Shown here: positions 12,882 through 55,693 of the stretch, piece after piece
Layout of the letters: each line of letters begins with the position of its first letter
Position numbering within the stretch: the first letter of the stretch is position 1
Assembly (NCBI GenBank): GCA_003709165.1
Contig: RDRZ01000001.1
Coordinates: 94,473-158,472 of the forward strand
Length of the DNA stretch: 64,000 nucleotides
DNA from: Flavobacteriaceae bacterium PRS1
GTDB lineage: Bacteria; Bacteroidota; Bacteroidia; Flavobacteriales; Flavobacteriaceae
Direction of reading: 5' to 3'
The notes under the pieces: generated by a model
The model's database searches: none
The model's input: only the letters and a program-made list of their open reading frames with translations
What the model was told of the DNA's origin: nothing
Position numbers and translations under genes: made by a program

Positions 12882-14795
12882 CTACATTTTAATTTCTTCA
12901 ATTTCTAACTGAATATCTTCCCAAATTTTCATTAATAAATTAAGATTTTCCTTCTTTTTTTGATATTCATCAAAGAATAACGGGTTAGAAACAATAGCAT
13001 CATAATTTATTTCTAATTCAACATCAATATCTTTTATTTCTATCTCTAATTGATGAATTTGGGCTTCTACTTTACTTAATTTATTATTAATAGATTTAAG
13101 TTTTTTTTGATCATGATAGGATCGTTTGTTATTCCCTTTTGTGACCTCTTTTTCTATTACATCCCGTTTTTCCACATCTCTTAAGTTTTGAATATTTCGC
13201 TGCTCTAAATAAAAATCGATATCACCTAAATACTCTTTAATACGCTGGTCTTTAAATTCGTAAACTTTATTGGTTAATCCCTTAAGAAAATCTCTATCGT
13301 GCGAAACCACAATTAATGTACCTTCAAACTTTTTTAAAGCTTGTTTCAACACATTTTTTGATGTAATATCGAGATGGTTGGTTGGTTCGTCCATCACTAA
13401 AAAATTTAAAGGCTGTAATAATAATTTAGCTAGTGCTAAACGGTTACGTTCGCCTCCCGAAAGTACTCTCACATATTTTTCCACATCATCGCCACGAAAT
13501 AAAAATGCTCCTAGAATATCTCGCACTTTACTTCTATTGGTTTTATTTGCAGCATCAATCATGGTATCCAAAACTGTTTTACTGCCATCTAAAAAATCAA
13601 CTTGATTTTGAGCAAAATATCCAATCTGTACATTATGTCCCAATTTTAGGTTTCCGTCAAAAGGAATTTCGTTGACAATTATTTTTGCCAACGTAGTTTT
13701 GCCTTGACCATTTTGTCCGACAAATGCAATTTTACTCTTTCGCTCTACAAGTAGATTTACATTTTTCAAAACCTGTAATTCTCCATAATTTTTTACGATG
13801 TTTTCTGATTCTAATACCACTTTCCCAGGTGTAATAGAAATAGGAAAATGCAATGACATAATCTTATTATCTTCTTCATCTACTTCAATGCGTTCAAGTT
13901 TATCCAATTTTTTTATAAGAGATTGTGCCATGGTAGCTTTAGTAGCTTTGGCTCTGAATTTTTCTATAAGCTTCTCGGTATGTTGTATTTGCTTTTGCTG
14001 ATTTTTTTGCGAGGCTAATTGCTGTGCTCTGATTTCTGAACGTAATATTAAGTATTCCGAATACGGTTTAGGATAATCATAAATTCTGCCTAAAGATATT
14101 TCTATAGTACGATTTGTTACATTATCCAAAACCATTTTATCATGCGACACAATTACAATGGCTCCAGTATAGTTTTTCAAAAACCCTTCCAACCAAATAA
14201 TAGATTCAATATCGAGATGATTGGTTGGCTCATCTAATAACAGCACATCGTTATTTTGTAGTAACAATTTTGCCAATTCAATACGCATACGCCAACCACC
14301 AGAAAAAGTATCTGTAAGTTTATTAAAATCTTCACGTTTAAAACCTAAACCCTGAAGGATCTTTTCGGTTTCGCCTTGATAGTTATAACCTCCTATTATT
14401 TCGTACTGATGCTGAATTTCATTTACATCTATCATTAATTGATGATAGGCTTCGCTTTCATAATCAGTTCGTTCTACAAGTAGCTTGTTTATATTTTCAA
14501 TTTTGGCTTCTAGTATTTTTATTTCTGTGAATGCTTGATACGATTCTTCCAATACTGTTCTTCCGTAAACAAAATCTATATCTTGCTTTAAAAAGCCAAT
14601 TGAAACTTCTTTTTCAGTGGCAATTTGCCCGGAATCATATTCCATTTCTCCAGACAAAATTTTTAACAATGTTGACTTTCCTGCTCCATTTTTTCCAACC
14701 AAACCAACACGATCGCCATTTCCTAACCGAAAGGTAATATCCTCGAATAAATAATCGCCTTGAAATGAGATAGATACCTTGTGTATATTAAGCAT
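12882..14795 (-). CDS. ABC-F family ATP-binding protein
   Basis: The 637-residue protein has two ABC ATPase domains and no membrane segment. Walker A motifs are GKNGAGKST (about 35) and GQNGQGKTT (about 358). Signature motifs FSGGWRMR and LSGGERNR are each followed by LLLDEPTNHLD or LVMDEPTNHLD. A charged linker (residues 240-310) joins the two, and a C-terminal coiled coil begins at about 555 (KKLKSINNKLSKVEAQIHQL). ABC-F proteins act on ribosomes rather than in transport. Several subfamilies share this shape, and I cannot choose among them. Confidence 0.92.
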   Translation of the reverse strand: MLNIHKVSISFQGDYLFEDITFRLGNGDRVGLVGKNGAGKSTLLKILSGEMEYDSGQIATEKEVSIGFLKQDIDFVYGRTVLEESYQAFTEIKILEAKIENINKLLVERTDYESEAYHQLMIDVNEIQHQYEIIGGYNYQGETEKILQGLGFKREDFNKLTDTFSGGWRMRIELAKLLLQNNDVLLLDEPTNHLDIESIIWLEGFLKNYTGAIVIVSHDKMVLDNVTNRTIEISLGRIYDYPKPYSEYLILRSEIRAQQLASQKNQQKQIQHTEKLIEKFRAKATKATMAQSLIKKLDKLERIEVDEEDNKIMSLHFPISITPGKVVLESENIVKNYGELQVLKNVNLLVERKSKIAFVGQNGQGKTTLAKIIVNEIPFDGNLKLGHNVQIGYFAQNQVDFLDGSKTVLDTMIDAANKTNRSKVRDILGAFLFRGDDVEKYVRVLSGGERNRLALAKLLLQPLNFLVMDEPTNHLDITSKNVLKQALKKFEGTLIVVSHDRDFLKGLTNKVYEFKDQRIKEYLGDIDFYLEQRNIQNLRDVEKRDVIEKEVTKGNNKRSYHDQKKLKSINNKLSKVEAQIHQLEIEIKDIDVELEINYDAIVSNPLFFDEYQKKKENLNLLMKIWEDIQLEIEEIKM

Positions 14796-14885
14796 TTTTG
14801 TTACAATAGTTAAACCGATTAAAAAGATTGATTTTGCAATTACTAAAACGCAAAAATAGTATAATTGTTCTTGTAAAAAAATAAT

Positions 14886-15935
14886 TTATTTTTTGTTAAA
14901 CCTACTAATATCAATCTCACTTTCTAAAGAGTTTCCGTATTCTATATAATTGAATAATTGCTCTGCAACATAAGGTGCTATCATAACACCACGTGTTCCT
15001 AAACCATTTAAAATAAACATATTTTTATGTTGTTGATGTTGCCCAACTATAGGTCTCCTATCTTTAACTGTTGGTCTAATTCCTGCTACTTGGTCTATGA
15101 CTTTATATTCACAATTTAAAAATTTATCCAGCTTGTTTAAAAGTTCTTTTTTTGCTTTTACTGTAATATTTGGACTCATATCATCCCAATCATAAGTGGC
15201 TCCTACATGATATAAATCATTTCCCAAAGGAATTAAAAATAAACTGGATTTTAACACAAAATCAATCTTTAAATCTGGTGCGTGAATGGTTAAAAGTTCG
15301 CCTTTAGTTGGTTTTAATGGCAAGTAATTAAAAAATGGATTATCTGTTACCCCAAACCCTTCAGCAAAAACAATATGTTTGGCTTTAAAATCATTATAAG
15401 ACACTTGAGTTTGTTTACAGATAAGTTCACCATAAACAAACGTTTCTTTAATAAGTTGTTTGTTATTTTGAAGACGTTCTCTATAACTTTTTACAAGTGT
15501 TGCTGTATCTATTCGACCTGTTTCAAGCACTTTTCCAAAACCAAAATTATTTTTAATAGCTGAATTATCTATATGAAATATTTCTGAAGAGAGAAATTGA
15601 GATAGGTTTGGCTTATCACAGGCTTCAAACCAATTGTTTTGTTCTTCTATTGATGCAAATAAGCGATAGACTGGAATTTTATAGTCGAGTTTAATATTTA
15701 AACGTTGTTCTAATTGATGATATATTGGCAAACCTAAATCAAGCTGTTCTTTTGCTTTCCAGACTTGTGTAAACCGTTTTAAAACAACCGGGTTGTACAA
15801 TCCTCCTGCTACAGTTGAAGAATACTGTGAATCATTTTCGAACACTACAAAAGATTTGTTATGCCGTTTTAACACTTCACATAATAGAATTCCTGCAAGT
15901 CCGGAACCAACTATTATAAAATCTACTTTTCTCAT
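14886..15935 (-). CDS. FAD-dependent oxidoreductase of the DAO (glycine oxidase/DadA-like) family
   Basis: This 349-residue protein begins with the dinucleotide-binding motif FIIVGSGLAGILLCEVL (residues 6-22) and ends with the family's C-terminal FAD contact region (NGLGTRGVMIAPYVAEQL). An acceptor region with GIRPTVKDRRPIVG precedes it. DAO-family enzymes oxidise amine groups on small substrates or, in MnmC, on a modified tRNA base. The short form here gives no clear substrate. It is transcribed alone. Confidence 0.8.
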   Translation of the reverse strand: MRKVDFIIVGSGLAGILLCEVLKRHNKSFVVFENDSQYSSTVAGGLYNPVVLKRFTQVWKAKEQLDLGLPIYHQLEQRLNIKLDYKIPVYRLFASIEEQNNWFEACDKPNLSQFLSSEIFHIDNSAIKNNFGFGKVLETGRIDTATLVKSYRERLQNNKQLIKETFVYGELICKQTQVSYNDFKAKHIVFAEGFGVTDNPFFNYLPLKPTKGELLTIHAPDLKIDFVLKSSLFLIPLGNDLYHVGATYDWDDMSPNITVKAKKELLNKLDKFLNCEYKVIDQVAGIRPTVKDRRPIVGQHQQHKNMFILNGLGTRGVMIAPYVAEQLFNYIEYGNSLESEIDISRFNKK

Positions 15936-42989: not shown

Positions 42990-44441
42990 TTGAGTAAATT
43001 ACCTTTAATAACGTTATCGAAAAAATTTCATAGAAACGAACATCAAATATTGATAGAGTTCGATTATAATCTTATACTTATTAATATTGTTAAACAAATT
43101 TCGTATACCAGATGGAGTTCCAGTTTAAAAAGTTGGTATATAAGAAATAACCCTAATAATTTAAAATAAATTTTTTCTGCCTTTAAAGGGCACACTTATA
43201 TAAATAGCCAAAATTTATATAAAAAAGCAATGAAAAAGTCTAGGCTTTACACCAAGCGTATTCGTGTTTTATCAGAAGAGAACAAAACTGTTTTAAATAA
43301 TTTTTATAAGTATTTAAAAGGAAAACGTTACAGTATAAGTACTATAAGAATTTATACTTTTTTTGTTGCAGATTTTATTGAATATCATAATAGCAGGACT
43401 ATAGAATCATTAACAAACAAAGATGTAGAATTATTTGTAGAGAATAGTTTTATTAAACGAGGTTATTCTATAAACCTGAGCTCGACCTAAGATTTAATTT
43501 ACAGAATACAAAGAAAAGGTAAGATTTGAAATGTGAAATTTGAAGGAATATCTAGATATTTTAAAAGTTTCACATAAAAAAGATTATTTTTCTTTGTATT
43601 TCCTTTGGATTTAGTGAATTTTCCTCAATTCTCGTCAAATTTTCTCAAATTAACCAGTTGGTCTTTCAAAAATCTGACTTCGAATTGAATAAAAATTCAT
43701 CTAAACTGTAAACAGATATTAGGTCGAACTCAGGTTATAAGTACGCATCGGCAATTTGTAAGTGCAATTAAACTTTTTGCTAATTTTAAACCTGAATGCA
43801 ATATTGATAATTTAAATCTACAACGCCCAAAAAAGTCTATTAAATTACCAAATGTTTTGTCTCAAGAAGAGATTATAGATTTAATACGATGTACACAAAA
43901 CTTAAAACACAGAGCTATTATTGCATTATTATATTCTTGTGGATTAAGAGTAAGTGAATTAATAAATTTAAAGTTAACAAATATAAATATTGACAGAAAG
44001 CAACTATTTATTGAAAACAGTAAAGGCAGAAAAGATCGTTATGTTAGTTTTGCTAACAGCTTTATTCCGATTCTCAATAATTATTTTTTAAGTTATAGAC
44101 CCAAGTATTATTTTGTTGAAGGTGTAAAAGACAAAAAATATAGTGCAGAAAGTATTAGGCAATTCATAAAACGAAATTGCAAATTAGCGCAAATTCACAA
44201 ACCTGTTACACCACATACCTTAAGGCATAGTTACGCTACTCATTTACTTGAAAATGGTGTTGATGTTCGTTATATACAATCGTTATTGGGTCATGCAAGA
44301 CCAGAAACTACAATGATTTATACACATATAAGAAGAAAATATTTAATGCAAATTTCAAATCCTTTAGATACTGCTTTATTAAAAACAAGAAACGCGGATA
44401 AAACCAATACAAACATTCTGTTATCCCGAAACTATAAATGA
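42990..44441 (+). pseudogene. Integron-like tyrosine recombinase, inactivated by a nonsense codon and a MITE
   Basis: One frame can be followed from TTG 42990 (LSKLPLITLSKKFHRNEHQI) to TAA 44441. It is broken twice. TAA at 43167-43169 replaces what should be Leu in NLK-x-IFSAFKG. A 264-bp element at 43473-43736 plus an ATA duplication interrupts YSI/STHRQF. Without them it would be about 394 residues: an extra N-terminal domain, a SAM-like core-binding domain (KRYSISTIRIYTFFVADFI) and a catalytic domain with Arg in CGLRVSEL, HTLRHSYATHLLE, LGHA and Tyr in MIYTHI. STHRQ, PHTLRHS, TTMIYTH and a following NPLD resemble integron integrases, but I see no IntI-specific insertion before the HxxR box. 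It is co-oriented with the cassettes downstream. Confidence 0.85.
43473..43736. mobile_element. 264-bp MITE with 18-bp terminal inverted repeats inside the recombinase gene
   Basis: Left end AACCTGAGCTCGACCTAA and right end TTAGGTCGAACTCAGGTT are inverted repeats with one mismatch. The element is flanked by the direct repeat ATA (43470-43472 and 43737-43739). Removing the element and one ATA restores the recombinase frame exactly (Tyr-Ser-Ile-Ser-Thr-His-Arg). It encodes nothing, so it must have been moved by a transposase elsewhere. Confidence 0.9.
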
Positions 44442-44460
44442 TAAATCCATATATTTGTTT

Positions 44461-44480
44461 GGATATAACGAGTTACCTGC
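44461..44480 (+). other. attI-like junction at the recombinase end of the array
   Basis: AACGAG^TTACCTGC: the crossover G is 44472, and the first cassette starts with TTACCTGC at 44473. The reverse complement, GCAGGTAA, is found at 50625-50632 as the left box of that cassette's 3' site. The junction is 31 bp after the recombinase stop, where an attachment site is expected when the recombinase points toward the cassettes. Confidence 0.65.
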
Positions 44481-44694
44481 AAGGCTGAAAAAAATAGATA
44501 GAGTACAAATATTGAAAAGAAAAATAGACCAAATAAATAAACAATTGACTGACTGGGAAGATTTTGTTTTTGCCGACCCGCAATTAAATGAAGCCAACGC
44601 ACATTGCACACATTTGCAAATCGCACAAGCCGACCCACAGTCCGAAATTTGCAAAAGAGTGCAATTTCTTCCACCAACACTCAATTAGACCTTA

Positions 44695-45117
44695 ATGACA
44701 GATGTACATGATATAGAAACCAGAAGCTTTAACATGTCAATGATTAAAGGAAAAAACACAAAACCTGAAATAGTAGTGAGGAAATTCCTTTTTCAGAATG
44801 GTTTTAGGTATCGCTTGAATTATTCAAAACTACCAGGGAAACCAGATATTGTTCTTCCTAAGTACAAAACAGTAATATTTGTCAATGGTTGTTTCTGGCA
44901 TGGACATGAAGAATGTAAATATTATGTTGTTCCAAAGACAAGGACTAAATGGTGGTTAAACAAAATAAATGAAACAAAAAAACGAGATAAAACTAAGGCT
45001 GTGAAATTAAAGGAACTAGGATGGAAAATACAAGTTATTTGGGAGTGCGAGTTAAAACCAGTAAATGTAGAGGAAACATTAAATGATTTGTTATTTAAAT
45101 TAATGGAAGAAAATTAA
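44695..45117 (+). CDS. vsr: Vsr-family (very short patch repair type) DNA endonuclease
   Basis: The 140-residue protein has the family pattern: RSFNMSMIKGKNTKPEIVVRK at the start, KLPGKPDIVLPKYKTVIFV with the catalytic Asp, NGCFWHGHEECKYY with Cys and His ligands, then TKWWLNKINETKKRDK. Vsr proteins nick at T:G mismatches produced by deamination of 5-methylcytosine and normally accompany a C5 methyltransferase. Here the methyltransferase begins within the stop region (TAATG), so the pair is translationally coupled. In a locus without another obvious nuclease, it might also serve as the effector; that is conjecture. Confidence 0.92.
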   Translation: MTDVHDIETRSFNMSMIKGKNTKPEIVVRKFLFQNGFRYRLNYSKLPGKPDIVLPKYKTVIFVNGCFWHGHEECKYYVVPKTRTKWWLNKINETKKRDKTKAVKLKELGWKIQVIWECELKPVNVEETLNDLLFKLMEEN

Positions 45118-46742
45118 TGAGTATACCAGTAATAGATATATTTGCAGGACCCGGAGGTTTAGGAGAGGGATTTACATCATTGCTTGATGAGGATGGTAAC
45201 AGAATTTTTAATATTAAGTTGTCTATCGAAAAAGATGAACATGCTCACCAAACACTCAGATTAAGAAGCTTTTATAGGCAATTTAAGAAAGATAATGTTC
45301 CTGATATTTATTATTCTTATATCAAAGAGAATAATAGGAAATTACAAGAAGCAATACTTAAGAAAATACAAACCGATTATCCTGATGAATGGAAGAAAGC
45401 TGAAAAAGAAGCATGGCATTTCGAATTACCATTTGAATTGGAAAAAAAGAAACGAAACGGAAAAGAATATACAATTGGATACACGCCTAAACAGATAATT
45501 GGAAAACATAAGGAATTAGATGAAAAGATAAAAGACTGTTTGCCAGAAAATAGGGACTTTTTACTAATAGGTGGGCCTCCTTGTCAAGCATACTCTTTAG
45601 TAGGTCGTTCCAGAAACCAAGGAATTTCAAATGATGATCATAGAGTACACTTGTATAAAGAATATCTGAGAATTATTGCAAAACATCATCCTGCAGTATT
45701 CGTAATGGAAAATGTTAAGGGACTTCTTTCAGCTAAAGTTGAAGGAGAAAAGGTATTTAACTTAATTAGAAAAGACTTACAAAATCCTGGTTCTGTATTT
45801 TCCGGTCTTAACTCTCCAAAATATAAAATCTATTCATTTGTTAATAAACCTGATGATTATGATGAAAATGGTTTTCCTGTTTATTTTGATAATAAGAAGT
45901 ATTTAATAAAAACAGAGAAATATCAAATCCCTCAAAAACGACACCGTGTAATTCTTTTAGGTATAAGAGAAGATATTGTAGTTGAATCTACAGGAGTAAT
46001 CGAACCGCAGGAAGAAATTAACCTAAGGACAGTAATCGATAATTTGCCACCCTTAAGAAGTGGAATTGGTAGAGAGATTTCGGGGGAAAATGAAAAAGGA
46101 AACCATATATATTCTAAAATTGAAAATACTCAAAAAAATTGGGAAACAGCAGTATCTGAATCCTTCAACAATTTAAGAAACATATTTACAGAACTGAATT
46201 TTGAAAGAGAAATTGAATTTCCTAGTTCAGAAGGAGCAAATTTTCTTGAGTTTAATTTAGTTGACAATACAAATCCACTTTATAACAAGTGGTTTAGAGA
46301 TGAAAAACTAAATGGGGTCCTTAATCATGAAACAAGAACACACCTAAGGGAAGATTTATGCAGATATCTTTTCTCTTCACTTTGGCGTAAACAAAAAGGT
46401 GATTTCCCTAAACTGAGAGATTATCCGGATTGGTTACTTCCAAAACATAAAAATGCAAAGAGTGGAAAATTTGCAGACAGATTCAGGACCCAGCGGCCTG
46501 ATGAACCTGCAACAACTGTTACCAGTCATATTTCTAAGGATGGGCATTATTTTATACATTACGATTCAGTTCAATGTAGAAGTTTAACAGTACGTGAAGC
46601 TGCGAGGATTCAAACTTTCCCTGATAATTATTATTTCTGCGGAAGTAGAACGCACCAATATCATCAGGTTGGCAATGCTGTACCTCCATTTCTAGCTATA
46701 CAGATTGCTAAAATTGTATATGAAATATTTCGTCATATATAA
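45117..46742 (+). CDS. DNA (cytosine-5-)-methyltransferase
   Basis: The 541-residue enzyme has all main C5-MTase motifs: I DIFAGPGGLGEGF (residues 6-18), IV GGPPCQAYSLVGRSR with the catalytic Cys (about 160), VI MENVKG (about 198), VIII QKRHRVILLGIR (about 277), IX RPDEPATTV (about 462) and X HQVGNAVPPFLA near the end. A charged insertion of about 120 residues lies between motifs I and IV. The recognition sequence cannot be predicted. No in-frame damage is seen, so it is probably active. A second promoter follows it. Confidence 0.95.
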   Translation: MSIPVIDIFAGPGGLGEGFTSLLDEDGNRIFNIKLSIEKDEHAHQTLRLRSFYRQFKKDNVPDIYYSYIKENNRKLQEAILKKIQTDYPDEWKKAEKEAWHFELPFELEKKKRNGKEYTIGYTPKQIIGKHKELDEKIKDCLPENRDFLLIGGPPCQAYSLVGRSRNQGISNDDHRVHLYKEYLRIIAKHHPAVFVMENVKGLLSAKVEGEKVFNLIRKDLQNPGSVFSGLNSPKYKIYSFVNKPDDYDENGFPVYFDNKKYLIKTEKYQIPQKRHRVILLGIREDIVVESTGVIEPQEEINLRTVIDNLPPLRSGIGREISGENEKGNHIYSKIENTQKNWETAVSESFNNLRNIFTELNFEREIEFPSSEGANFLEFNLVDNTNPLYNKWFRDEKLNGVLNHETRTHLREDLCRYLFSSLWRKQKGDFPKLRDYPDWLLPKHKNAKSGKFADRFRTQRPDEPATTVTSHISKDGHYFIHYDSVQCRSLTVREAARIQTFPDNYYFCGSRTHQYHQVGNAVPPFLAIQIAKIVYEIFRHI

Positions 46743-46781
46743 ATAATATAAACTATATTGTAATAATATAGTATACTATTC

Positions 46782-46812
46782 TTGCATATAATTATAATAT
46801 GCGATATATTTG
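46782..46812 (+). promoter_or_regulatory. Internal promoter for the ATPase half of the defence cassette
   Basis: TTG (46782-46784), 20 bases, then TATATTTG (46805-46812) match the Bacteroidota consensus closely. Transcription would start about 10 bases before the ATG of the 74-residue protein, so the second half of the operon can be expressed apart from the methyltransferase. Confidence 0.6.
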
Positions 46813-46828
46813 CAGAAATTAAATTATT

Positions 46829-47053
46829 ATGAATGAGAAAAGACAACGATTCGAAAGAGTTGCAGGAAACAGAGTTCAGGCAATAAATGAAAAGATTGAT
46901 AGTTTAGCGAAATGTTCAAATAAAAATAACTATTCTTATTCTCAACAAGATGTAAAAAAAATGTTTTCATCAATTAAAGCAAAAGTAAAATATGCAGAAC
47001 AAAAGTTCTATGTTGAGTTGGGAGTCAAAAATGGCAATAAATTCACTTTTTAA
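46829..47053 (+). CDS. Small conserved-looking protein in the defence locus
   Basis: A 74-residue basic, helical protein. The N-terminus (RFERVAGNRVQAINEKIDSL) and centre (YSYSQQDVKKMFSSIKAKV) both look amphipathic, with no membrane segment or known catalytic motif. The family is not identified. It begins just after a good promoter and ends 2 bp before the ATPase gene, implying coupled translation and perhaps a physical partnership or regulatory role. Confidence 0.7.
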   Translation: MNEKRQRFERVAGNRVQAINEKIDSLAKCSNKNNYSYSQQDVKKMFSSIKAKVKYAEQKFYVELGVKNGNKFTF

Positions 47054-47055
47054 CT

Positions 47056-48918
47056 ATGGATAATTTACAATGGAAATTTGCTCCCACAGGAGGTGGTTCA
47101 ATTGATGGAGTTAACAATCCGATGATTAGTCACTTTACTGGAAATTACAACTACCATCTGGCAAGAGAAATAATTCAGAATTCACTTGATGCAAAACTGG
47201 ATGATTCAAAACCTGTTGTAGTCAAGTTTAATATTGAAACTTTTTCTAAAAGTGATTTTCCTGGTCACGATCAATTATTGAAAATATTTCAATAATGTCA
47301 GCAATTCTGGCCACAAAAAAATACAGATGCACATTCTTTTATTAAGACAGCAATTAAATGTCTGAATCAGGACGAAATATCATTTTTAAAGTGCTCTGAT
47401 TATAATACGATTGGTTTATCAGGAAGTGATGACGATTTAACGAGCAGTTGGTTTAATTTGATTAAATCAAGAGGTTCAAGTTCAAAATACAAGGGAGAAG
47501 GTGGTTCGTTTGGAATTGGGAAAGGAGCGCCTTTTGCAGCGTCTGATATAAGAACACTTTTCTATTTTACAAAAAACAAGCAAGGATTTTCAATTTTTCA
47601 AGGTGTTGCTGAGCTTTTAAGTTTTAAAGAAGAGGACGAAATAAGACGAGGTTGCGGATCTTATGGGAAAAATGGCCATGCCTCATTACGAGACTTAAGA
47701 GAAGAAATACCAGAAAGATTTTGGAGAAAATCAGATGTATCTTCCGGCCTTGACATATATATTGCGGGGTTCAAAAAGCAAAATAATTGGAAAGCAGAAT
47801 TAATACAATCAGTCCTCCGTAATTTCTGGTATGCTATTTACAAGAAAGAATTAATTGTTGAAGTAGAGGAGGTCATAATTAGCAAAAACACCCTTGAAAA
47901 GCATCTTGTTAAAAATTTTTTCGGTGAAAGTTTAAAGGATGATGTTGAGCCTACAGGAAATCCACTAAAATATTATAAGTCTGTTAAAAACGGAAAATAT
48001 CATACAGAAAACCTAAAATCATTGGGGAATGTTGAATTCTATTTTTTAGAAATAGAAGAGCATATGAATTATGTTGCCATGATGCGTAAACCTCATATGG
48101 CTGTTTTCTCCAAAGCTTATCGTTATCCGGGAACATATTGTGGTTTGTTTATTTGTGATGACAAAAAAGGAAATCAGATTCTGAGAAAAATGGAACCACC
48201 AACCCATAATAGGTGGGAACCTGATTCTTATGGTTCTACAGGATCAAAAATACTAAATGAGATACATGAATGGATTCGCTTAATCCTAAAATCCCAACAA
48301 AAAATACAACGAAAAGGAAAACTAGATATACCTGATATTTATAAATATCTTCCGTTTGATGATGGGTTAGAAAAAGGAGATGGAAAAGGAAATAAAGACT
48401 ATTCAGGACAGGAATCTGAAAAAGAAACAGCAAGATTACTACAAAAGAAAGAAGAACCAGAAGTAAATATCAAAATATCTCCTTACAGAGTTTCAATTAT
48501 TAATCAACCTGAAAAAACTGGCTTGGGTGGTGGATTAAGAGGAACAGGGACAAAGAAAAAAAAGGGAAAAGGTAAAGGAATTGGTGGGCAAGATGGGCCT
48601 AAAAAAGCTTTGACTTTTCAGGAAATAAATGTAATACCTATAATAACAAAGAAAGTACGAGATGGTTATGAATATCTGGTTAAAATTAAAAGCAACGAGG
48701 AAAGAACATGTCGATTAAACTTCTTTGCTGTTGGCGATGAAGGAACTGATAGGGTCAATTTATTAAAAGCAACTGATGAATTAGGGCATGACATTCACAT
48801 CACAAGTAATAAAATCAGTCATGTTAAACTTTATAAAAACATAGAGTATAAAATGTTTATTCACATTGAATCCAGCAATAAGTATGCATTAAAAGTAAAC
48901 GCTTATGAATTACAATAA
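47056..48918 (+). pseudogene. GHKL-type ATPase of a restriction/defence locus, split by an in-frame TAA
   Basis: The frame runs 620 codons with a single TAA at 47293-47295. Upstream is the N box (LAREIIQNSLDAKLDD, about 34-49). Downstream, with no frame change, is the G1-like glycine motif GEGGSFGIGKGAPFAAS (about 145), then a long region rich in Lys/Gly (GTGTKKKKGKGKGIGG, about 500). GHKL ATPases of the MutL/MORC-like kind are known companions of methyltransferases in defence loci. The stop separates the N box from the ATP lid, so neither half alone can be an ATPase. Either the gene is dead or the TAA is suppressed or a sequencing error. Confidence 0.8.
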
Positions 48919-49723
48919 CAGAACTTATCCTCATCCTGTTTTGGGAATTGAAAATAACATAAACGACTCATTTGAAATAAATTTTAATGTTTCAACAGAC
49001 AAAGGATTAATAGGTATTAATTTAGAATATAAACTTTCTAATAAAGATCTTACTAAACTTATTGAGTCCCGTCTTGCAACTTACTGCATACAAATATATT
49101 GCAAAGGCACGTTGTACAGAGAAGTATTTAGGTCTTATAAACCCTTACCTCAGAAAATAGAAATACCTTCAACTAGGTTACATGACCAGGTTGATGCTGA
49201 TTTTTTTATTTGCGCGTGCGATGAAATCGTCAATTATACAAATTCATCCGTCAGTGATGATTATAAAGGATATAAATTCTTAATTGAAAAAGGAGATATT
49301 CTTGCTTACGGTGGTAAAGGTATATTTTACGCAAACAAATCTTACGAAGAATTAAAATCAGTTTCGGCATTTATGAATATTGATGCGGGTGAGAGAAAAA
49401 CTATGCCGATGTATAATGATTATGAAGGAGATAAAATAACTATTTATTTATCACAATCTTCATATGAGTTATATCAAAAGATTAAAAACCAAGAGTTCTA
49501 TTTTGACACATTACATAGCTCATTAGTTTTACCTGCTTTAATAGAAGCTATCCGGTTTGCTCAATCTGATGAATCTGAAGATTATCAGGACAGGAAATGA
49601 TACAATTTACTTGATAAGTTAATTCAGTCAAATGATATTGGTGATCCATTACAAATTGCACAAAAAATCCTGGACTATCCAGTTAACCGCTCATTTGCCT
49701 CTTTGTATGAAATAATTAAATAA
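48905..49723 (+). pseudogene. Unknown defence-locus protein with an in-frame TGA near its end
   Basis: The open part (231 residues) overlaps the ATPase end by 14 bp. At 49598-49600 a TGA follows EDYQDRK. The same frame then runs on for 40 codons (YNLLDKLIQSNDIGDPLQI ... SFASLYEIIK) to TAA 49721-49723, nine bases before the next start. TGG (Trp) changed to TGA by one base would explain it. No family is recognised. The protein is soluble and beta-rich at the start, helical at the end. It may still work without the last 40 residues. Confidence 0.7.
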
Positions 49724-49731
49724 AATTAGCG

Positions 49732-50445
49732 ATGGCCTCAAAAATAGAAATTCCTCTTTTTACAACTAACTATACAACCAGACTATTCAAAAACCTAGAG
49801 AATGAAACGTATATAGAAAATTATAGGTCAGAGAAGTTTATTTTCGATTCAAATTTTGCATCAGGTACTAGTGGAATTTTCATTAAATCGGATTTCAAAT
49901 TAAATCCAAATGATCATATTTCAACGAATTCCATAAACCTGTATGAAAATCTACAAATTAATGAAACTCATGCATCAGATAGGAGACTATGGACTTATCT
50001 TACACATGTTCATTTTTGGACATATATGAAAAAAGATTGGGCTATTGATTTTTCAAAAGATAAAGCCAAAATTGTTGATTTTATCCGAGATAGATACTTT
50101 TTGAATACATTGAATATTCGCTCATTGACTCATAATGGAATTTCTCGTTTATGGTGGTATACACATTTGACAATTGATGACAGCAGAAAAGATAAATATG
50201 AATTAACTAAAGTACTTTTAAGCCTACAAGATATACCTGTATCACTTCTTGAAAGGTCAATTGGCAGTAATAGTAAGGTAAGAAAAGCTGTATTGGAATT
50301 TTTACTGGAAAATCCAGAAATTAAAACCAGCAAGAATGTTCAGAATTTATTGAAACAAGTAAACTTAGCAGGTGGAGTCAAAAATATTCCAATGTTAAAG
50401 CTTAATGAAATTAAATCTCTTTTAAATGGTGTCAAATTGATTTAA
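49732..50445 (+). CDS. DUF6339-like protein of the defence locus
   Basis: A 237-residue soluble protein. The centre RRLWTYLTHVHFWTYMKKDW and THNGISRLWWYTHLTID, rich in Trp and His, resembles what I remember of the DUF6339 family, which is also found near ATPases and methyltransferases in other genomes. The C-terminus is helical (KLNEIKSLLNGVKLI). No catalytic motif can be pointed to. It is the last gene of cassette 1, and the cassette's recombination site begins 180 bp after it. Confidence 0.6.
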   Translation: MASKIEIPLFTTNYTTRLFKNLENETYIENYRSEKFIFDSNFASGTSGIFIKSDFKLNPNDHISTNSINLYENLQINETHASDRRLWTYLTHVHFWTYMKKDWAIDFSKDKAKIVDFIRDRYFLNTLNIRSLTHNGISRLWWYTHLTIDDSRKDKYELTKVLLSLQDIPVSLLERSIGSNSKVRKAVLEFLLENPEIKTSKNVQNLLKQVNLAGGVKNIPMLKLNEIKSLLNGVKLI

Positions 50446-50624
50446 AAAGATAATAAATGAAAGCCCACGTACACAGCCAAACACATTTGCAATTCGCACC
50501 TGCCAACGCTAAAGCCAAAAATTGCAAAAGAGTCTGTCAGTCTGCCAACTCTTTTTTGCCGACCCGAAAAAGCAAAATCAGGTTAGTGCTAAAAAATGTA
50601 ATGATGGAAATGAATAAAGCCCAG

Positions 50625-50749
50625 CAGGTAACAATGTATATAAAAAATAAGCGAGATAGTAGTAGTATTAAGGTTTGTAGCACGTTTCACCTTTCTTGTA
50701 AGTTGAAAGATTTGTGCTTCGAAATCGCTTACTTTTCATATACTTAACG
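50625..50749 (+). repeat. attC-like site of cassette 1
   Basis: Left box GCAGGTAAC, spacer AAT, arm GTATATAAAAAATAAGCGA. The right arm TCGCTTACTTTTCATATAC (50725-50743) is followed by TTAACG^TT. The arms pair fully apart from A:C at positions 7 and 12. An inner stem CTTTCTTGTAAGTTGAAAG lies in the apical part. Confidence 0.75.
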
Positions 50750-51012
50750 TTATGAGTAATTGCACAAGTGACGTGTTACTACGCCGCAAAAACCAGCACT
50801 CGCATGAATAGATGGTTTTCACGGCTCCCATAACACTCAATCACTCACAACGGTCAGGGAATAACTGCGCATCTCAGACAATGGTTTTATTTTTCAACCT
50901 TTTTTGATTAACTTGTGAAACGTTCGCACAACAATGGATATACTATATAGATGCGCAGCCAATGCTCTAAACGTGTATGCTGCGCATCCACAGAGCATAA
51001 TCCCTGTGACCG
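50750..51012 (+). mobile_element. Cassette 2: non-coding repeat X, copy 2
   Basis: A 263-bp cassette starting TTATGAGTAATTG, with the inverted copy CAATCACTCACAA inside. Its own 3' site is 50926-51012: left box GCACAAC, arms rich in GATGCGCAGC/GCTGCGCATC, end GACCG. It is nearly identical to 53331-53591 throughout. No coding frame is supportable, so it may supply a promoter, a structured RNA or only a recombination site. Confidence 0.75.
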
Positions 51013-51089
51013 TTAGCAAAAATTAGAACAGACAAACGGGCAAGCCGAAAACCGATTAGTGTAGGCAAATATTTTATTAATTTATTTTT

Positions 51090-51635
51090 ATGAAATCAAT
51101 CAATTTTATTACCAAAGTAATTTTTGTTCTACTCTTATCCATTTCTATGTTAAGCTGTAAAAACGAAACAGTAAATGAGCCATCTGCTGAACATCTAGAA
51201 TTAGAAAGAGCTGATAAACAATTAGCGGATAACCTGAAAATGTATGAAACTGTCTGGGACGACATTATCAACAAACGAGAAATTGATAAAATAAACGAAA
51301 CGAATTTTGACAATAATATCACGTTGATTACAGCACCAGAAAATGTAGTTGGAATTCAAGGTTTCAAGGCTTACTATCAAAATTATCTGACTGGATTTTC
51401 AGATGTGACATTCACCATTGTTGATGTTTTTGGACAAGGCGATAAAATTGTAAAACACTGGAATTTTAAAGGCACGCATTCAGGTGAATTTTTCGGAATC
51501 CCAGCTTCTGGAAAAAAAGTGGACATTGACGGAGTTACACTTGTCAAAATGAAAGATGGTAAAATAGCGCAAGAACAGGATTTCTTGGATAATTTGTCGT
51601 TTTATCAGCAACTTGGATTAATCCCAACTGAATAA
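51090..51635 (+). CDS. SnoaL-like (NTF2-fold) lipoprotein, cassette 3
   Basis: The 181-residue protein has a lipobox LSC at Cys23 (VLLLSISMLSC) and a SnoaL-type ester-cyclase fold: WDDIINKREIDKINETNFD, GIQGFKAYYQNYLTGFSD, HWNFKGTHSGEFFGIPASG and a terminal LSFYQQLGLIP. SnoaL-like proteins include polyketide cyclases and many domains with unknown ligands; here the lipid anchor puts it in the envelope. It is the only gene of its cassette, 77 bp from the upstream crossover. Confidence 0.85.
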   Translation: MKSINFITKVIFVLLLSISMLSCKNETVNEPSAEHLELERADKQLADNLKMYETVWDDIINKREIDKINETNFDNNITLITAPENVVGIQGFKAYYQNYLTGFSDVTFTIVDVFGQGDKIVKHWNFKGTHSGEFFGIPASGKKVDIDGVTLVKMKDGKIAQEQDFLDNLSFYQQLGLIPTE

Positions 51636-51647
51636 AATAAAAACTAC

Positions 51648-51736
51648 TGCTAACAATGGCTATAAGTAATTGCTTGTTCTCGCCTACTTCTGAAAATCCT
51701 CGCGGATTCTAAGTTGCACAAATCATACACAACCCG
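51648..51736 (+). repeat. attC-like site of cassette 3
   Basis: Left box TGCTAAC complements TTAGCA at the cassette start 51013-51018. Arms are GGCTATAAGTAATTGC and a weaker partner ending CATACACAACCCG^TT. This arm is the same as in the site at 54867, although the right arm has diverged. An inner hairpin GAAAATCCTCGCGGATTC forms the tip. Confidence 0.65.
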
Positions 51737-51754
51737 TTAGCAAATATAAAAATT

Positions 51755-53134
51755 ATGAAGAAAAGATTATTAATAGCATTTGTCTTATTGAGCCAATTAG
51801 GGTTTTCTCAAAACAGAGCTCCCTCTTGTTGGCTTCGATACCAAGACAATTTTCAAGGAGACATATTAATTAATACCGTTAGAGTTCAATCTCCGTCCCC
51901 AACTTACACATACTACTGTAATTTACAGTGGAATGCTGGAATGGAAGGAGGTGGGTACTGTGGTATTCAGGAACATCCAGATGGAAGAAATTTTATATTC
52001 TCAATTTGGGATCCAATTAGTTCAACAGATGCTATTACAGCTCCATATACACATTCAGGAACACAAATTCAATCTTTTGGAGGTGAAGGAACTGGTTTAA
52101 AATCATGGAACTTTGATATTGGCTGGGAAACAGATCAATGGTATTCTTTTGTTGCTAGAGCTTGGAATGATAATACGCATACAATGTTTGGATATTGGGT
52201 ATTTAGTCATTCTAATCAAGAATGGTATCACCTTGTAACAATGGATTACCCTGTAGCTAATGTTCGTTTCAACTCATCTACCGGTTCATTTATCGAAGAT
52301 TGGTTTGGGAATGGCTGGAACACTAGAGAAGTTCATCATAAAGAAGGATGGAAAAGAAAAACAGGTGATTTATCTTGGAATCCATTAACAAATTCTTTCT
52401 TTAATAGGGTTAGCCCTGATGCTGGAGCTATAAACTATATTGATAATTATGATGGAGGAGTAGCAACAGATTATTACTTCATGAAAAGTGGAGGATCTGT
52501 TTCTCCTGTAACAAATACTTCAGGGACAATGCTTTCCCTTGGTAACAGCAATAGTGATCACGGATTCCCTGTAGGAGAAATAACGGGGTTGAATACAGCT
52601 ATTATTGCAAACCTTTTGACATTGGAATGGGACGTAGATCTATCTAAGTCCCCTCAGTTTTCTTACCATATAGAGATTTATGATAACCCTGCTTTTTCAG
52701 GAAGTCCAATAATTCAATTGGAACAGAATACTCCTCATGCAAGAACTTCAGATATAGATATTAGTTCTTTGGTTAATGGTAATGAATATTATATTCGATT
52801 TTATATCATTGATATTTTTGATAACCAATCCACACCCATTACCGATAATTTTATTGGCGAAAATCTAAGTATTGATGAAACAGGTAACCAGTTCTCTATT
52901 AGTTATTATCCAAACCCTTTTCAAGATAAAATCTATTTGAAGTTTAACAATAAATTCGACAAATGTAATATTGAATTACTGAATATTTTAGGAAGATCTA
53001 TTTTTTCAAACGAATATTATATGAGCTCTGAAATAGAACTTAACTTCCCTAATAATATGGAAAAAGGAGTGTACTTTTTAAGAATAACTTGTCAAGAAAA
53101 AAAATCACAAACTATTAAATTGATTATGAATTAA
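51755..53134 (+). CDS. T9SS-exported DUF3472-like protein, cassette 4
   Basis: The 459-residue protein starts with a clear signal peptide (KKRLLIAFVLLSQLGFSQ). The body is a Trp/Gly-rich DUF3472-like domain (GGGYCGIQEHPDGRNFIFSI, FGGEGTGLKSW, IEDWFGNGW). A fibronectin-like part comes next and a C-terminal sorting domain (ISYYPNPFQDKIYLKF ... KGVYFLRITC) last. It should be secreted or displayed on the cell surface by the T9SS encoded at 16-21 kb. It is the intact relative of the chimeric protein at 9273. Confidence 0.85.
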   Translation: MKKRLLIAFVLLSQLGFSQNRAPSCWLRYQDNFQGDILINTVRVQSPSPTYTYYCNLQWNAGMEGGGYCGIQEHPDGRNFIFSIWDPISSTDAITAPYTHSGTQIQSFGGEGTGLKSWNFDIGWETDQWYSFVARAWNDNTHTMFGYWVFSHSNQEWYHLVTMDYPVANVRFNSSTGSFIEDWFGNGWNTREVHHKEGWKRKTGDLSWNPLTNSFFNRVSPDAGAINYIDNYDGGVATDYYFMKSGGSVSPVTNTSGTMLSLGNSNSDHGFPVGEITGLNTAIIANLLTLEWDVDLSKSPQFSYHIEIYDNPAFSGSPIIQLEQNTPHARTSDIDISSLVNGNEYYIRFYIIDIFDNQSTPITDNFIGENLSIDETGNQFSISYYPNPFQDKIYLKFNNKFDKCNIELLNILGRSIFSNEYYMSSEIELNFPNNMEKGVYFLRITCQEKKSQTIKLIMN

Positions 53135-53142
53135 AACCATTT

Positions 53143-53330
53143 GCTAACACTGTATATAGCAAATAGGGCTTCAGTGGTTTACGAAAGTTCAGTATTATTT
53201 ACAAACACCGCCAAATCGTTGATTTGGCTTTTAAGAAATGAATAAATTAAAAACAAAATACAACGTTTTGACTCAGAGCAAACCTGAAAGTTTATCGCTT
53301 TCTACTGCCCTACTTGCCATATACTAATCG
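53143..53330 (+). repeat. attC-like site of cassette 4
   Basis: Left box ATTTGCTAA (53139-53147) is the exact complement of TTAGCAAAT at the cassette start 51737-51745, nine bases. The arm GTATATAGCAAATAGGGC pairs with GCCCTACTTGCCATATAC, with A:C at positions 7 and 12. The right end is TAATCG^TT. The 110-bp apical region is non-coding. Confidence 0.78.
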
Positions 53331-53591
53331 TTGTGAGTAATTGCACAAGTGACGTGTTACTACGCCACGAAAACCAGCACTCGCATGAATAGATGGTTTT
53401 CACGGCTCCCATAACACTCAATCACTCACAACGGTCAGGGAATAACTGCGCATCTCAGACAATGGTTTTATTTTTCAACCTTTTTTGATTAACTTGTGAA
53501 ACGTTCGCACAACAATGGATATACTATATAGATGCGCAGCCAATGCTCTAAACGTGTATGCTGCGCATCCACAGAGCATAATTCCTGACCG
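53331..53591 (+). mobile_element. Cassette 5: non-coding repeat X, copy 3
   Basis: A 261-bp near-identical copy of 50750-51012, differing at a few bases (GCCACGAAAA for GCCGCAAAAA). The recombination site is 53507-53591, ending CCTGACCG^TT. Two copies with different neighbours in one array show that X moves or is copied as a unit. Confidence 0.78.
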
Positions 53592-53711
53592 TTGTGCAAC
53601 ATTTGTCTACTCACCCAAAAAAATGAACTTGGAGATAATTCAACTCAAAAAAACATATTGTATTACGCGTAGATTTTTTTTAAACCAAATCATGTATAAG
53701 GATAAATACTA

Positions 53712-54827
53712 ATGAAAAAAATAATTATAATAACAGCTTTTATTTTTGGAACATTCAATGCCATAGCTCAAATAGCGAACGTTGAAGAGAAGTTTGATTT
53801 ACCAATAATATTAAGTGAATCATCAGGGGCTATATTTTTTAATGATAAACTTATTATTCATAATGATTCGGGTAATGAAAATAAACTTTATGAGTTAGAT
53901 ACAATTTCTGGGTTAGTTACTAGAACAGTTACAGTTACCAACGCCACAAATGTAGATTGGGAAGATATTGCACAAGATAACACATCAATATATATTGGCG
54001 ATATAGGCAACAACAGTGGAGATAGAACCGATTTAAAAATTTACAAAATAAATAAAAGTGATTATCTAAGTTCCACCAATGTAACAGCAGAAATTATAAA
54101 CTTTAGCTATTCAGATCAAATAGATTTTGCCCCTAACCCTAATATCACAGAATGGGATGCAGAAGCGCTAATTTCTTTTGACGCAAATAACTTGATTTTG
54201 TTTACTAAAAATTGGGTTAATGGCACAACAAAAGCCTACTCAATACCAAAAAACAGCGGAACATTTACTATAGACTCATTAACAACAACTTTATCTAGCG
54301 GAGGGTTAATAACTGGGGCTACCTACAATCCATCAACAGAAAAAGTATATTCAATAGGTTATAATTCGGTATTACAACCTTTTGTTTGGGTTAGTGAAAA
54401 CTTTACAAATAATGATGTTTTTTCAGGCACTAACACACAAACATTACTTACAAGCTTAGGGTTTGAACAAGCAGAGGCTATAACATATATTGAAGCTAAT
54501 AGGTATTTTATTACATCCGAATCATTTAATATCCCTCCCTTTTCCGATAATGGAAAATTAGTTTCATTTACAACAAATGACAACGTATTATCTATTAGAG
54601 AACAGGCAACTAGAGTAGTTAGTTTATATCCAAATCCTGTCAAAGATGTGTTATTCATTAATGACCTAGAGTTTACTTCAATTGAAATTTATGATACCAA
54701 GTCTGCACTTGCTTATCGAGGATACAACCAAAAAATAAATGTTTCAGAACTTAATAAAGGGCTTTATTTGGTTAAGATTAATTTAAAAGATCATACATAT
54801 ATTATCAAGAAAATAATTAAGGATTAA
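53712..54827 (+). CDS. T9SS-exported beta-propeller-like protein, cassette 6
   Basis: The 371-residue protein has a signal peptide (KKIIIITAFIFGTFNAIA), repeated blade-like strands (LIIHNDSGNENKLYELD, VDWEDIAQDNTSIYIGDIGN, KVYSIGYNS) and a C-terminal sorting domain (SLYPNPVKDVLFI ... KGLYLVKINL). It is likely exported to the surface or medium. Its ligand is not known. The gene starts 120 bp after the cassette boundary and is the only gene in it. Confidence 0.82.
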   Translation: MKKIIIITAFIFGTFNAIAQIANVEEKFDLPIILSESSGAIFFNDKLIIHNDSGNENKLYELDTISGLVTRTVTVTNATNVDWEDIAQDNTSIYIGDIGNNSGDRTDLKIYKINKSDYLSSTNVTAEIINFSYSDQIDFAPNPNITEWDAEALISFDANNLILFTKNWVNGTTKAYSIPKNSGTFTIDSLTTTLSSGGLITGATYNPSTEKVYSIGYNSVLQPFVWVSENFTNNDVFSGTNTQTLLTSLGFEQAEAITYIEANRYFITSESFNIPPFSDNGKLVSFTTNDNVLSIREQATRVVSLYPNPVKDVLFINDLEFTSIEIYDTKSALAYRGYNQKINVSELNKGLYLVKINLKDHTYIIKKIIKD

Positions 54828-54866
54828 TTGAATATTGTTTTAAAAACTAAAAAAATATATAACATT

Positions 54867-54991
54867 GCACAACAATGGCTATAAGTAATTGCTTGCTCTC
54901 GCCTACTTCTGAAAATCCTTGCGGATTTTCAGTTTGGTGGGTTCTTGTACAATTAAGTGCGAAACCACGCAACTACTCATAGCCGAGACCG
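54867..54991 (+). repeat. attC-like site of cassette 6, end of the visible array
   Basis: Left box TTGCACAA (54865-54872) complements TTGTGCAA at 53592-53599. The arm GGCTATAAGTAATTGC pairs with GCAACTACTCATAGCC, A:C at positions 7 and 12, and the right end is GAGACCG^TT. The next bases, TTGTGAGTAA, begin another X-type repeat that is cut off after ten bases at 55002. Confidence 0.78.
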
Positions 54992-55002
54992 TTGTGAGTA
55001 AC

Positions 55003-55020
55003 TTTGACTCGTCCTAAAAT
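55003..55020 (+). mobile_element. Relic of an insertion-sequence end
   Basis: TTTGACTCGTCCTAAAAT is repeated exactly at 63944-63961, where it is followed by an apparent transposase start. Here the rest of the element is missing, so this is the scar of a past insertion or deletion. It coincides with the sudden end of the cassette array. Confidence 0.6.
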
Positions 55021-55693
55021 TATCAATTCATCAAAATTCTTACATCACATTTTAGCATGGGGTCTTAGAAGATTTGTCAGTCCAGATGCCAACTTACTTA
55101 TATTTAGTCACTTCCATGTCGGCACAGAGATTTTACAGTTTATAGCGGGGAATATTCCTAATTTAGAAATAGTTGGAAACCCTTTAAAACCTAAAGATTT
55201 TAAGGATGTAAAAGATGATTTGTTTTTGAATCATGATTTGAACTTATACAATTTTGTTATTAGCTTAAATAGTCAATTGAAAGAGAAAGACATTACGATT
55301 AGCCCTCCCGAAAAAATTAATTTAGACATGATTACGGAAGATCAATTTGATCATATAGAATTCCCTAATAAGTGGACAAACATTTTGGATTTACGTTCAG
55401 CTATTGAACTTTTCACGCCTTTTTATCAATTGTTTTTAACCTTTAATGATTTCGTAAGAGCTTCAAATTCATTGCAATTAGACGAAACAATTGCGATTTA
55501 TACATCACAAATTTTAGGAACTCCTAGTCATTTAGGATTAGTTAATAATAAACACCCTATGGTACCTGTTACTACCTACAGTTCCGCTTATCGGTTGGTT
55601 TTACATGGTCTATCAGCTGAAACACTACATGAAGTATTGGTGAGAATAAAGCTTAACAAAAACATTGATGGTGTTATTATTCCAAAAAAATAA
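55004..55693 (+). CDS. Unknown protein, probably lacking its original 5' end
   Basis: The frame (229 residues from a TTG inside the 18-bp relic) is protein-like throughout: HHILAWGLRRFVSPDANLLI, FSHFHVGTEILQFIAGNIP, ELFTPFYQLFLTFNDFV, YSSAYRLVLHGLSAETLHE. No family is recognised. The frame begins within foreign DNA, and no ATG or RBS is placed near a plausible N-terminus, so the natural start was probably removed by the rearrangement. It is followed 14 bp later by a membrane-protein gene, suggesting a former operon. Confidence 0.5.
   Translation: MTRPKIINSSKFLHHILAWGLRRFVSPDANLLIFSHFHVGTEILQFIAGNIPNLEIVGNPLKPKDFKDVKDDLFLNHDLNLYNFVISLNSQLKEKDITISPPEKINLDMITEDQFDHIEFPNKWTNILDLRSAIELFTPFYQLFLTFNDFVRASNSLQLDETIAIYTSQILGTPSHLGLVNNKHPMVPVTTYSSAYRLVLHGLSAETLHEVLVRIKLNKNIDGVIIPKK

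What the first reader, a model, noticed from the sequence alone, without database searches (positions are those of the whole stretch)
42990..54991. An integron-like cassette array driven by a recombinase without the IntI insertion
Downstream of a tyrosine recombinase gene, five consecutive units end at the same G^TT crossover type (after G at 44472, 50749, 51012, 51736, 53330, 53591 and 54991). The first bases of each unit are complementary to the left box of its own 3' hairpin, not of its neighbour: TTACCTGC/GCAGGTAA, TTAGCA/TGCTAA, TTAGCAAAT/ATTTGCTAA, TTGTGCAA/TTGCACAA, and TTGTG/CACAA for the X cassette (the X copy at 50750 starts TTATG, one mismatch). In integrons this arises because each circular cassette is opened inside its own attC and carries the last bases to its front. 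The recombinase shares STHRQ, PHTLRHS and TTMIYTH with IntI proteins but lacks a visible IntI-specific insertion, so this may be an independent or divergent integron class.
Basis: partly seen in the sequence, partly recalled or inferred. Interest (0 to 1): 0.95.

Follow-up and report, generated by a model that had tools for sequence, protein, structure and literature searches.

The report
Integrons run by a non-IntI recombinase
A marine flavobacterium carries a row of gene cassettes, each ending in a DNA hairpin, behind a now broken recombinase gene, and 53 of 60 sampled genera of its family carry such hairpin sites, in rows of up to about 70,000 bases; this is likely an overlooked second kind of integron whose enzyme lacks the part held to be essential in integrons.

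Summary
All seven G^TT boundaries are in the window. A covariance model trained only on other genomes ends on the same six sites, two of them weakly. In 71 of 80 related loci the recombinase gene is followed by a conserved attI-like sequence that stops at G^TT, then variable DNA. Behind the gene lie same-orientation hairpin sites (177 downstream, 4 upstream). In 136 of 164 cassettes the first bases match the cassette's own 3' box exactly, against 4 for the neighbour. Near-identical cassettes in different places stay identical up to G^TT and part there (82 of 85 pairs). Arrays reach about 70 kb with 56-82 sites. The recombinase lacks the IntI insertion (58-59 against about 100 residues). IntI itself is found in 0 of 149 Flavobacteriaceae genomes. 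The recombinases form a branch beside IntI. The window's own recombinase is dead: one stop codon and a 268-bp insert. Hairpin (single-strand) recombination by this enzyme is inferred, not shown. Nine paper searches found no description of it.

The parts
42990..44441 (+). Recombinase gene, pseudogene here: N-terminal domain, core-binding domain (PF13495) and tyrosine-recombinase catalytic domain (PF00589), in pieces
   Evidence: pieces searched apart
43167..43169 (+). In-frame stop codon inside the recombinase
43471..43738 (.). 268-bp element with inverted ends inserted in the recombinase; four further near-full copies (84-95%) and two partial ones in the genome
44441..44472 (+). attI-like site (..ATATATTTGTTTGGATATAACGAG^TT)
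   Evidence: same motif after the gene in 71 of 80 loci
44473..50749 (+). Cassette 1 (6.3 kb): Vsr, C5-cytosine methyltransferase, candidate defence genes PDC-M33A (split)/B/C (DUF6339)
50630..50751 (+). attC-like hairpin of cassette 1
   Evidence: R1 52.5 bits
50750..51012 (+). Cassette X, copy 1
50930..51014 (+). attC-like hairpin of X copy 1
   Evidence: R1 16.8 bits, weak
51013..51736 (+). Cassette 3: SnoaL-like protein (51090-51635)
51652..51738 (+). attC-like hairpin of cassette 3
   Evidence: R1 38.1 bits
51737..53330 (+). Cassette 4: DUF3472 protein with T9SS sorting domain (51755-53134)
53146..53332 (+). attC-like hairpin of cassette 4 (long form)
   Evidence: R1 46.3 bits
53331..53591 (+). 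Cassette X, copy 2 (98.4% identical to copy 1)
53511..53593 (+). attC-like hairpin of X copy 2
   Evidence: R1 23.0 bits, weak
53592..54991 (+). Cassette 6: T9SS-sorted protein (53712-54827)
54871..54993 (+). attC-like hairpin of cassette 6; bottom strand folds with z -7.1
   Evidence: R1 87.9 bits
54992..55693 (+). DNA after the last crossover: DUF6999 gene that matches only positions 63-275 of the family

Best explanation
The window holds a six-cassette integron-type array, likely built by the tyrosine recombinase beside it, which lacks the IntI insertion, through recombination of hairpin attC-like sites with an attI-like site at G^TT. Shown by sequence, mostly in relatives: an attI-like site directly behind the gene, tandem same-orientation cassettes each ending in a covarying hairpin, cassette fronts that belong to the cassette's own hairpin, and cassette copies whose identity ends at G^TT. 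Inferred: that the adjacent recombinase does the work; that, as in integrons, a cassette leaves as a circle, opens inside its own attC and re-enters at attI; and that the substrate is the folded single strand. In the window's own genome the recombinase is inactivated, so this array is likely frozen unless an enzyme is supplied from elsewhere.
For: attI-like motif within 280 nt of the gene end in 71 of 80 loci against 46 of 3,950 random upstream windows; conserved up to G^TT plus a purine, then variable but for an A at +9. PWM sites: 177 on the gene's strand downstream in 43 of 55 regions (258 kb), 1 on the other strand there, 3 and 1 in 641 kb upstream. Own-box match 6/6 in 136 of 164 cassettes, next box 4 of 164, shuffled mean 2.25 of 6; the bases tested lie outside the PWM. 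In G040, 73 of 81 own and 0 next; G014 array 1, 46 of 50 own and 4 next; array 2, 37 of 42 own and 4 next; G024, 3 of 4 and 0; G025, 1 of 4 and 1. Cassette pairs at 97% or more (85 pairs among 42 cassettes, most within G014 and G040): identity 1.0 through G^TT, then 0.47, 0.42, 0.33, 0.24; 82 of 85 under 0.6 beyond. Hairpin: 94.2% of 977 cells paired, 193 cells changed on both sides against 51.7 shuffled and 28-39 when slid; G-U in only 3 cells, which suits DNA rather than RNA. ORFs: 320 on the array strand, 4 opposite, 27 none, of 351 cassettes. Sites in 43 of 44 genomes with a recombinase relative and 10 of 16 without (Fisher p 0.0009). IntI in 0 of 149 Flavobacteriaceae genomes, while the same model rings in 57 of 198 genomes of the phylum sample. 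In G014, XerC, XerD and this enzyme are the only matches of the XerD profile at E<=1e-30.
Against: No recombination was observed. Ten of 16 genomes without a detected recombinase still have sites, and one genome with it (G008) has none. G014 has a second 45-site cluster with no recombinase beside it. In the window, units 3 and 5 do not favour their own box over the next, and the X hairpins score weakly. In G025 the own-box rule holds in only 1 of 4. PWM and R1 were trained on arrays chosen for lying behind the gene. For 3 of 8 bottom strands (L033, L013, L121) the lowest-energy fold is not the consensus stem. R1 also hits 42 genomes outside the family, and of the 36 of these that one search tested, 15 carry IntI, so R1 may partly see classical attC sites. 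The window's recombinase is dead.
Confidence: 0.93

Rival explanations
1. The array is a CALIN: classical cassettes once gathered by a true IntI (or by one visiting on a plasmid), and the neighbouring recombinase is unrelated.
For: The window's recombinase is broken; sites also occur without a detected recombinase in 10 of 16 genomes; true IntI occurs in other families of the phylum, and 15 of 36 tested non-Flavobacteriaceae genomes with R1 hits carry it.
Against: 0 of 149 Flavobacteriaceae genomes have IntI at E<=1e-40. R1 finds no site in four IntI loci (68 kb; it is not known how many cassettes these hold). The attI-like site follows this recombinase in 71 of 80 loci, and arrays start directly at it.
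Confidence: 0.05
2. Cassettes are modules flanked by XerC/XerD (pdif-like) sites, moved by the housekeeping XerC/XerD.
For: Profile matches of XerC/XerD type are present in the three array-bearing genomes tested; the recombinase family is Xer-like.
Against: Sites are mostly ~123-nt covarying hairpins, not ~28-bp dif sites (recalled). Each cassette's front belongs to its own 3' hairpin. Arrays begin at a site next to this recombinase.
Confidence: 0.02
3. The hairpins are repeats (MITE-like or terminators) spread by transposition between genes, and the integron look is a by-product.
For: Hairpins are repeated, and some single sites are scattered over the own genome.
Against: One strand only behind the gene (177 against 1); complete cassettes, not hairpins alone, are the copied units and end at G^TT; own-box complementarity has no reason under this reading.
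Confidence: 0.01

Closest known systems
Integrons with IntI (chromosomal superintegrons of Vibrio; mobile class 1)
   Same: Integrase gene, attI-like site, tandem same-orientation cassettes, hairpin attC-like sites, crossover at G^TT, own-attC front, arrays of about 70 kb, near-identical sites in one array (G040), cassette genes mostly without Pfam match (10 families among 78 ORFs of G040)
   Different: Recombinase lacks the IntI insertion and fails the IntI model; in the main clades the gene points towards its array instead of away from it; core site is GTTR without a clear GTTRRRY (consensus recalled); R1 found no site in four IntI loci, though it has some hits in IntI-bearing genomes
XerA-type tyrosine recombinases (NF040815)
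   Different: Other side of the tree; the main clades carry an extra N-terminal domain of about 75 residues; associated with cassette arrays
CALIN in lytic phages, including Polaribacter phage P12002L (PMC9892861, passages read)
   Same: Cassette-like units in a flavobacterial phage; one attC of that phage was recombined by IntI1
   Different: Our model hits P12002L once, at 14503-14624, not near the methyltransferase genes (29-32 kb and 38 kb) of the published cluster

Membership tests
Integron (platform: integrase, attI, attC cassette array) | Site-specific tyrosine recombinase gene next to the array | tested here: met
   broken copy in the window
Integron (platform: integrase, attI, attC cassette array) | attI site at the array head | tested here: met
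   conserved motif in 71 of 80 loci, 46 of 3,950 control windows
Integron (platform: integrase, attI, attC cassette array) | Cassettes end in attC: variable sequence, conserved foldback structure, crossover G^TT | tested here: met
Integron (platform: integrase, attI, attC cassette array) | Recombination of the folded single strand of attC by the integrase | not testable with these tools
   only indirect: covariation almost without G-U; bottom strands fold better than shuffles, z -2.2 to -7.1 for 8 sites, though 3 of 8 not into the consensus stem
IntI integron integrase | IntI-specific insertion in the catalytic domain (used to define IntI, PMC9668308 passages) | tested here: not met
   58-59 residues between R260 and H319 in all 118 flavobacterial sequences measured; IntI median 100 (12 full rows 85 or more, the cut IntI4 row not usable); XerC/XerD 64-69
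IntI integron integrase | NCBIfam TIGR02249 above cut-off 265 | tested here: not met
   193-212 bits for six relatives; 0 of 149 genomes at E<=1e-40
IntI integron integrase | Falls inside the IntI clade | tested here: not met
   13 IntI rows are one clade at 100/100; the flavobacterial group is beside them
XerC/XerD | Falls with XerC or XerD | tested here: not met
   Xer rows on the other side of a 99/94 branch
HARP / XPB damage-recognition type domain (N-terminus) | Sequence or fold match | tested here: inconclusive

The most novel reading that the evidence does not exclude
Flavobacteriaceae carry a second lineage of integrons, widespread and of superintegron size, whose integrases never had the IntI insertion and form the sister branch of IntI. 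The insertion would then not be what makes folded-DNA cassette recombination possible, and these enzymes may show the state from which IntI arose. In the main clades a HARP/XPB-like N-terminal domain may read the folded site instead.
Probability: 0.65. Interest if true: 0.96.

Novelty: new variant of a known kind. Interest (0 to 1): 0.93.

Why it matters
The IntI insertion is used as the definition of an integron integrase and is called necessary for integron recombination (PMC9668308, passages read); a recombinase survey calls it essential for integron function, while noting that it is not fully conserved in its integron-like subgroup (PMC8138268, passages read). IntegronFinder finds IntI by a profile of that domain (PMC9668308). 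Its survey reports one complete integron in Bacteroidetes proper, in Salinibacter ruber (PMC9024848, passage). Here 53 of 60 sampled Flavobacteriaceae genera have the sites, and arrays of 56-82 sites stand in single-contig genomes. An abundant group of marine bacteria would thus have a large cassette-capture system that integrase searches of this kind would be expected to miss, and the origin of integrons becomes directly testable with enzymes that lack the insertion.

Tried and rejected
Strain comparison: the one genome of the same genus met (G381) has only a truncated recombinase near a contig end, and the left flanking gene finds only a 29% match there, so no empty-site comparison was possible. 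Conserved chromosomal location: the commonest upstream gene family is shared by only 9 of 77 loci. Link to published phage attC sites: R1 does not hit the published P12002L cluster. N-terminal domain as the general replacement of the IntI insertion: considered, but recombinases without it (272 and 277 aa, L171, L172) also stand beside arrays, so it cannot be required. Defence role of the cassettes: 0 of 78 G040 cassette ORFs match PADLOC, although window cassette 1 does. Rfam has no family for these sites in the window. L159, from another family, falls in the flavobacterial branch, but R1 finds no site in 16 kb around it. The AU tests do not decide whether IntI plus the flavobacterial rows without L159 are one clade (p 0.098 and 0.196) or the flavobacterial rows alone (p 0.322 and 0.424). 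In one genus (g61) only 5 of 17 genomes have R1 sites, so the spread is patchy. Nine paper searches on this question (one search listed 25 of 430 hits) gave no paper on this system; a tenth was on the N-terminal domain. Most subscription papers and preprints are not held. Passages only were read of PMC8138268, PMC8618304, PMC9892861, PMC9024848, PMC8565304 and PMC9668308.

Rows dropped before counts: one search left out 9 sequences (broken or short copies L091, L096, L084, L111, L113, and L154, L155, L156, L158, extra fetches of the array recombinases of three genomes); one search left out 23 further rows (long branches and thinning); one search thinned flavoInt1 and flavoInt2 and left out long branches; searches counted only cassettes under 2.5 kb; in G040 the PWM found only 4 sites, so the R1 ends were used; one search found a stop inside L046 and no ORF in 5 loci. 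In one search a first measure of the insertion failed for most rows, and one search replaced it. One search scored at most 58 candidates a genome and at most 11, so their counts are lower bounds.
Full report
What was checked. The seven G^TT boundaries are in the sequence. I built a covariance model (R1) from 70 sites of other Flavobacteriaceae, less than 80% alike, with no window site in it. Inside the window alone the own-box rule is reached by 4 of 720 permutations, but units 3 and 5 do not prefer their own box.

The recombinase. The gene spans 42990-44441 and is dead in this genome: an in-frame stop at 43167-43169 and a 268-bp inverted-repeat element at 43471-43738, with four near-full and two partial copies elsewhere in the genome. 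Close intact relatives exist (P0001, 393 aa, 97% identical to the C-terminal query). The query gave 7,999 scored hits; the 120 listed are 66-97% identical, and the genera named there are Flavobacteriaceae as far as I recall. Six relatives score 193-212 bits with the IntI model (cut-off 265) and 208-225 with the XerA model (cut-off 220). Between the conserved R260 and H319 all 118 flavobacterial sequences measured have 58-59 residues, IntI a median of 100, XerC/XerD 64-69. So the IntI insertion is absent.

attI-like site. In the 80 loci kept of 558 confirmed, 71 have TATAA[C/T]-N-N-G^[T/C]T behind the gene, embedded in a conserved stretch of about 30 bases; conservation ends at TT plus a purine, apart from an A at +9. 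Random upstream windows have the short motif in 46 of 3,950. Contigs break within 3 kb downstream of the gene in 50 of 80 loci, but upstream in only 4 of 80, as repeated sites would cause.

attC-like sites. A two-box PWM, seeded from the window and refined on regions behind the gene, finds 177 sites on the gene's strand in 43 of 55 regions (54 loci and the window), 1 on the other strand, and 3 plus 1 in 641 kb upstream. In the window itself this PWM finds only one of the six sites; R1 finds all. Sites are mostly about 123 nt, some about 188. The inner stem covaries: 12 of 14 pairs change on both sides, 94.2% of cells paired, 193 double changes against 51.7 in shuffles; G-U occurs in 3 of 977 cells, which suits DNA pairing. 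A dyad read by protein on double-stranded DNA would also avoid G-U. Eight bottom strands fold better than shuffles (z -2.2 to -7.1; 0-5 of 200 shuffles as good), but for L033, L013 and L121 the lowest-energy fold is not the consensus stem.

Cassette logic. For 164 cassettes in these loci the first bases match the cassette's own left box 6/6 in 136, the next box in 4, shuffled mean 2.25 of 6. The bases compared lie outside the PWM, so this is an independent test. In other genomes: G014 array 1, 46 of 50 (next 4); array 2, 37 of 42 (next 4); G024, 3 of 4 (next 0); G025, 1 of 4 (next 1); G040, 73 of 81 (next 0). Of 351 cassettes the longest ORF of 60 aa or more is on the array strand in 320, opposite in 4, absent in 27.

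Mobility. Among the 351 cassettes 85 pairs, made by 42 cassettes and mostly within G014 and G040, are 97% or more identical. Identity is 0.99 over the last 60 bases, 1.0 through G^TT, then 0.47, 0.42, 0.33 and 0.24; 82 of 85 are under 0.6 in the next 100 bases. Cassettes of 558-1,677 bp that are 100% identical occur in both G014 arrays, roughly half a megabase apart. The site of cassette X recurs three times on another contig of the window's genome. Only 3 pairs cross genomes. This is what site-specific cassette shuffling at G^TT leaves; it is not a direct observation of the reaction.

Scale and spread. G040: 82 sites in about 69 kb behind the recombinase; G014: 56 sites in about 70 kb, plus a 45-site cluster. 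In one genome per genus, 53 of 60 Flavobacteriaceae have sites at E<=1e-6 and 44 of 60 have a recombinase relative at E<=1e-60; sites in 43 of 44 with and 10 of 16 without (Fisher p 0.0009). In the phylum 60 of 296 genomes have sites, 18 of them Flavobacteriaceae; of the other 42, one search tested 36, and 15 of these carry IntI, so part of the hits outside the family may be classical attC sites.

Several recombinase types share the sites. Two co-directional clades and divergent ones as in classical integrons (L171, L172, L173, L174, with 3, 5, 2 and 4 sites on the opposite strand upstream and none downstream) occur; L171 and L172 lack the N-terminal domain. Of the 17 loci examined in that call, 11 had at least one site in one of these two arrangements and 6 had none; no site lay in the other two positions.

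Phylogeny. With XerA, XerC and XerD on one side (99/94), 13 IntI rows are one clade (100/100) and the flavobacterial rows plus L159 another (98/91) (in one search IntI plus flavobacterial rows plus L159 98/92). The tree is unrooted and holds no phage integrases. IntI is absent from 149 Flavobacteriaceae genomes at E<=1e-40; the controls of that call were silent too, but the same model rings in 57 of 198 genomes of the phylum.

Known work. IntegronFinder 2.0 (passages) reports one complete integron in Bacteroidetes proper; the archaeal-integron paper (passages) defines IntI by the insertion, and a recombinase survey calls it essential though not fully conserved (passages). Nine paper searches found no description of flavobacterial integrons with insertion-free recombinases; preprints and most subscription papers were not searchable.

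Verdict. It works like an integron by the sequence tests available. Its enzyme is not IntI by three tested features. I file it as a new variant of a known kind, a second integrase lineage. The unproven step is the reaction itself.

Noticed in passing
L128 (phage P12002L) about 14505-15196, minus strand: A lone cassette in a lytic Polaribacter phage: an R1 site (64.6 bits) behind gp24, and a unit start TTGTGTACA that by eye equals the complement of its own left box.
   Followed up: partly
window 43471-43738: 268-bp inverted-repeat, MITE-like element with four near-full and two partial further copies in the genome; it splits the recombinase.
   Followed up: partly
window 50750-51012 and 53331-53591; L164: Cassette X, about 262 bp, twice in the window; its 83-nt site recurs three times on contig C23 of the same genome.
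   Followed up: partly
window 44695-50445: Cassette 1 carries Vsr, a cytosine methyltransferase and a candidate defence system (PDC-M33A split, B, C) in one 6.3-kb unit.
   Followed up: partly
window 55004-55693: The gene right after the last crossover matches DUF6999 only from position 63, as if its front were lost at the array end.
   Followed up: no
L121-L124 (G040): Many sites of one array are nearly identical to each other while their outer boxes vary, as in Vibrio VCR arrays (comparison recalled).
   Followed up: partly
L011, L034, L035 (Tenacibaculum pelagium): Three contigs of one assembly hold the recombinase near or at a contig end, so there may be several copies.
   Followed up: no
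window 10878-10922: A 45-nt weak R1 match (24.5 bits, E 0.004) far from the array; R1 also gives short matches of this kind in L127.
   Followed up: no
viral contigs L198-L200: Exact matches of a site pattern in three public viral contigs; cassettes may travel in phages.
   Followed up: no
phylum sample: True IntI over the model's cut-off in 57 of 198 genomes of the phylum, all of those listed outside Flavobacteriaceae; more than the one Bacteroidetes case of the survey passage would suggest (taxonomies differ).
   Followed up: no
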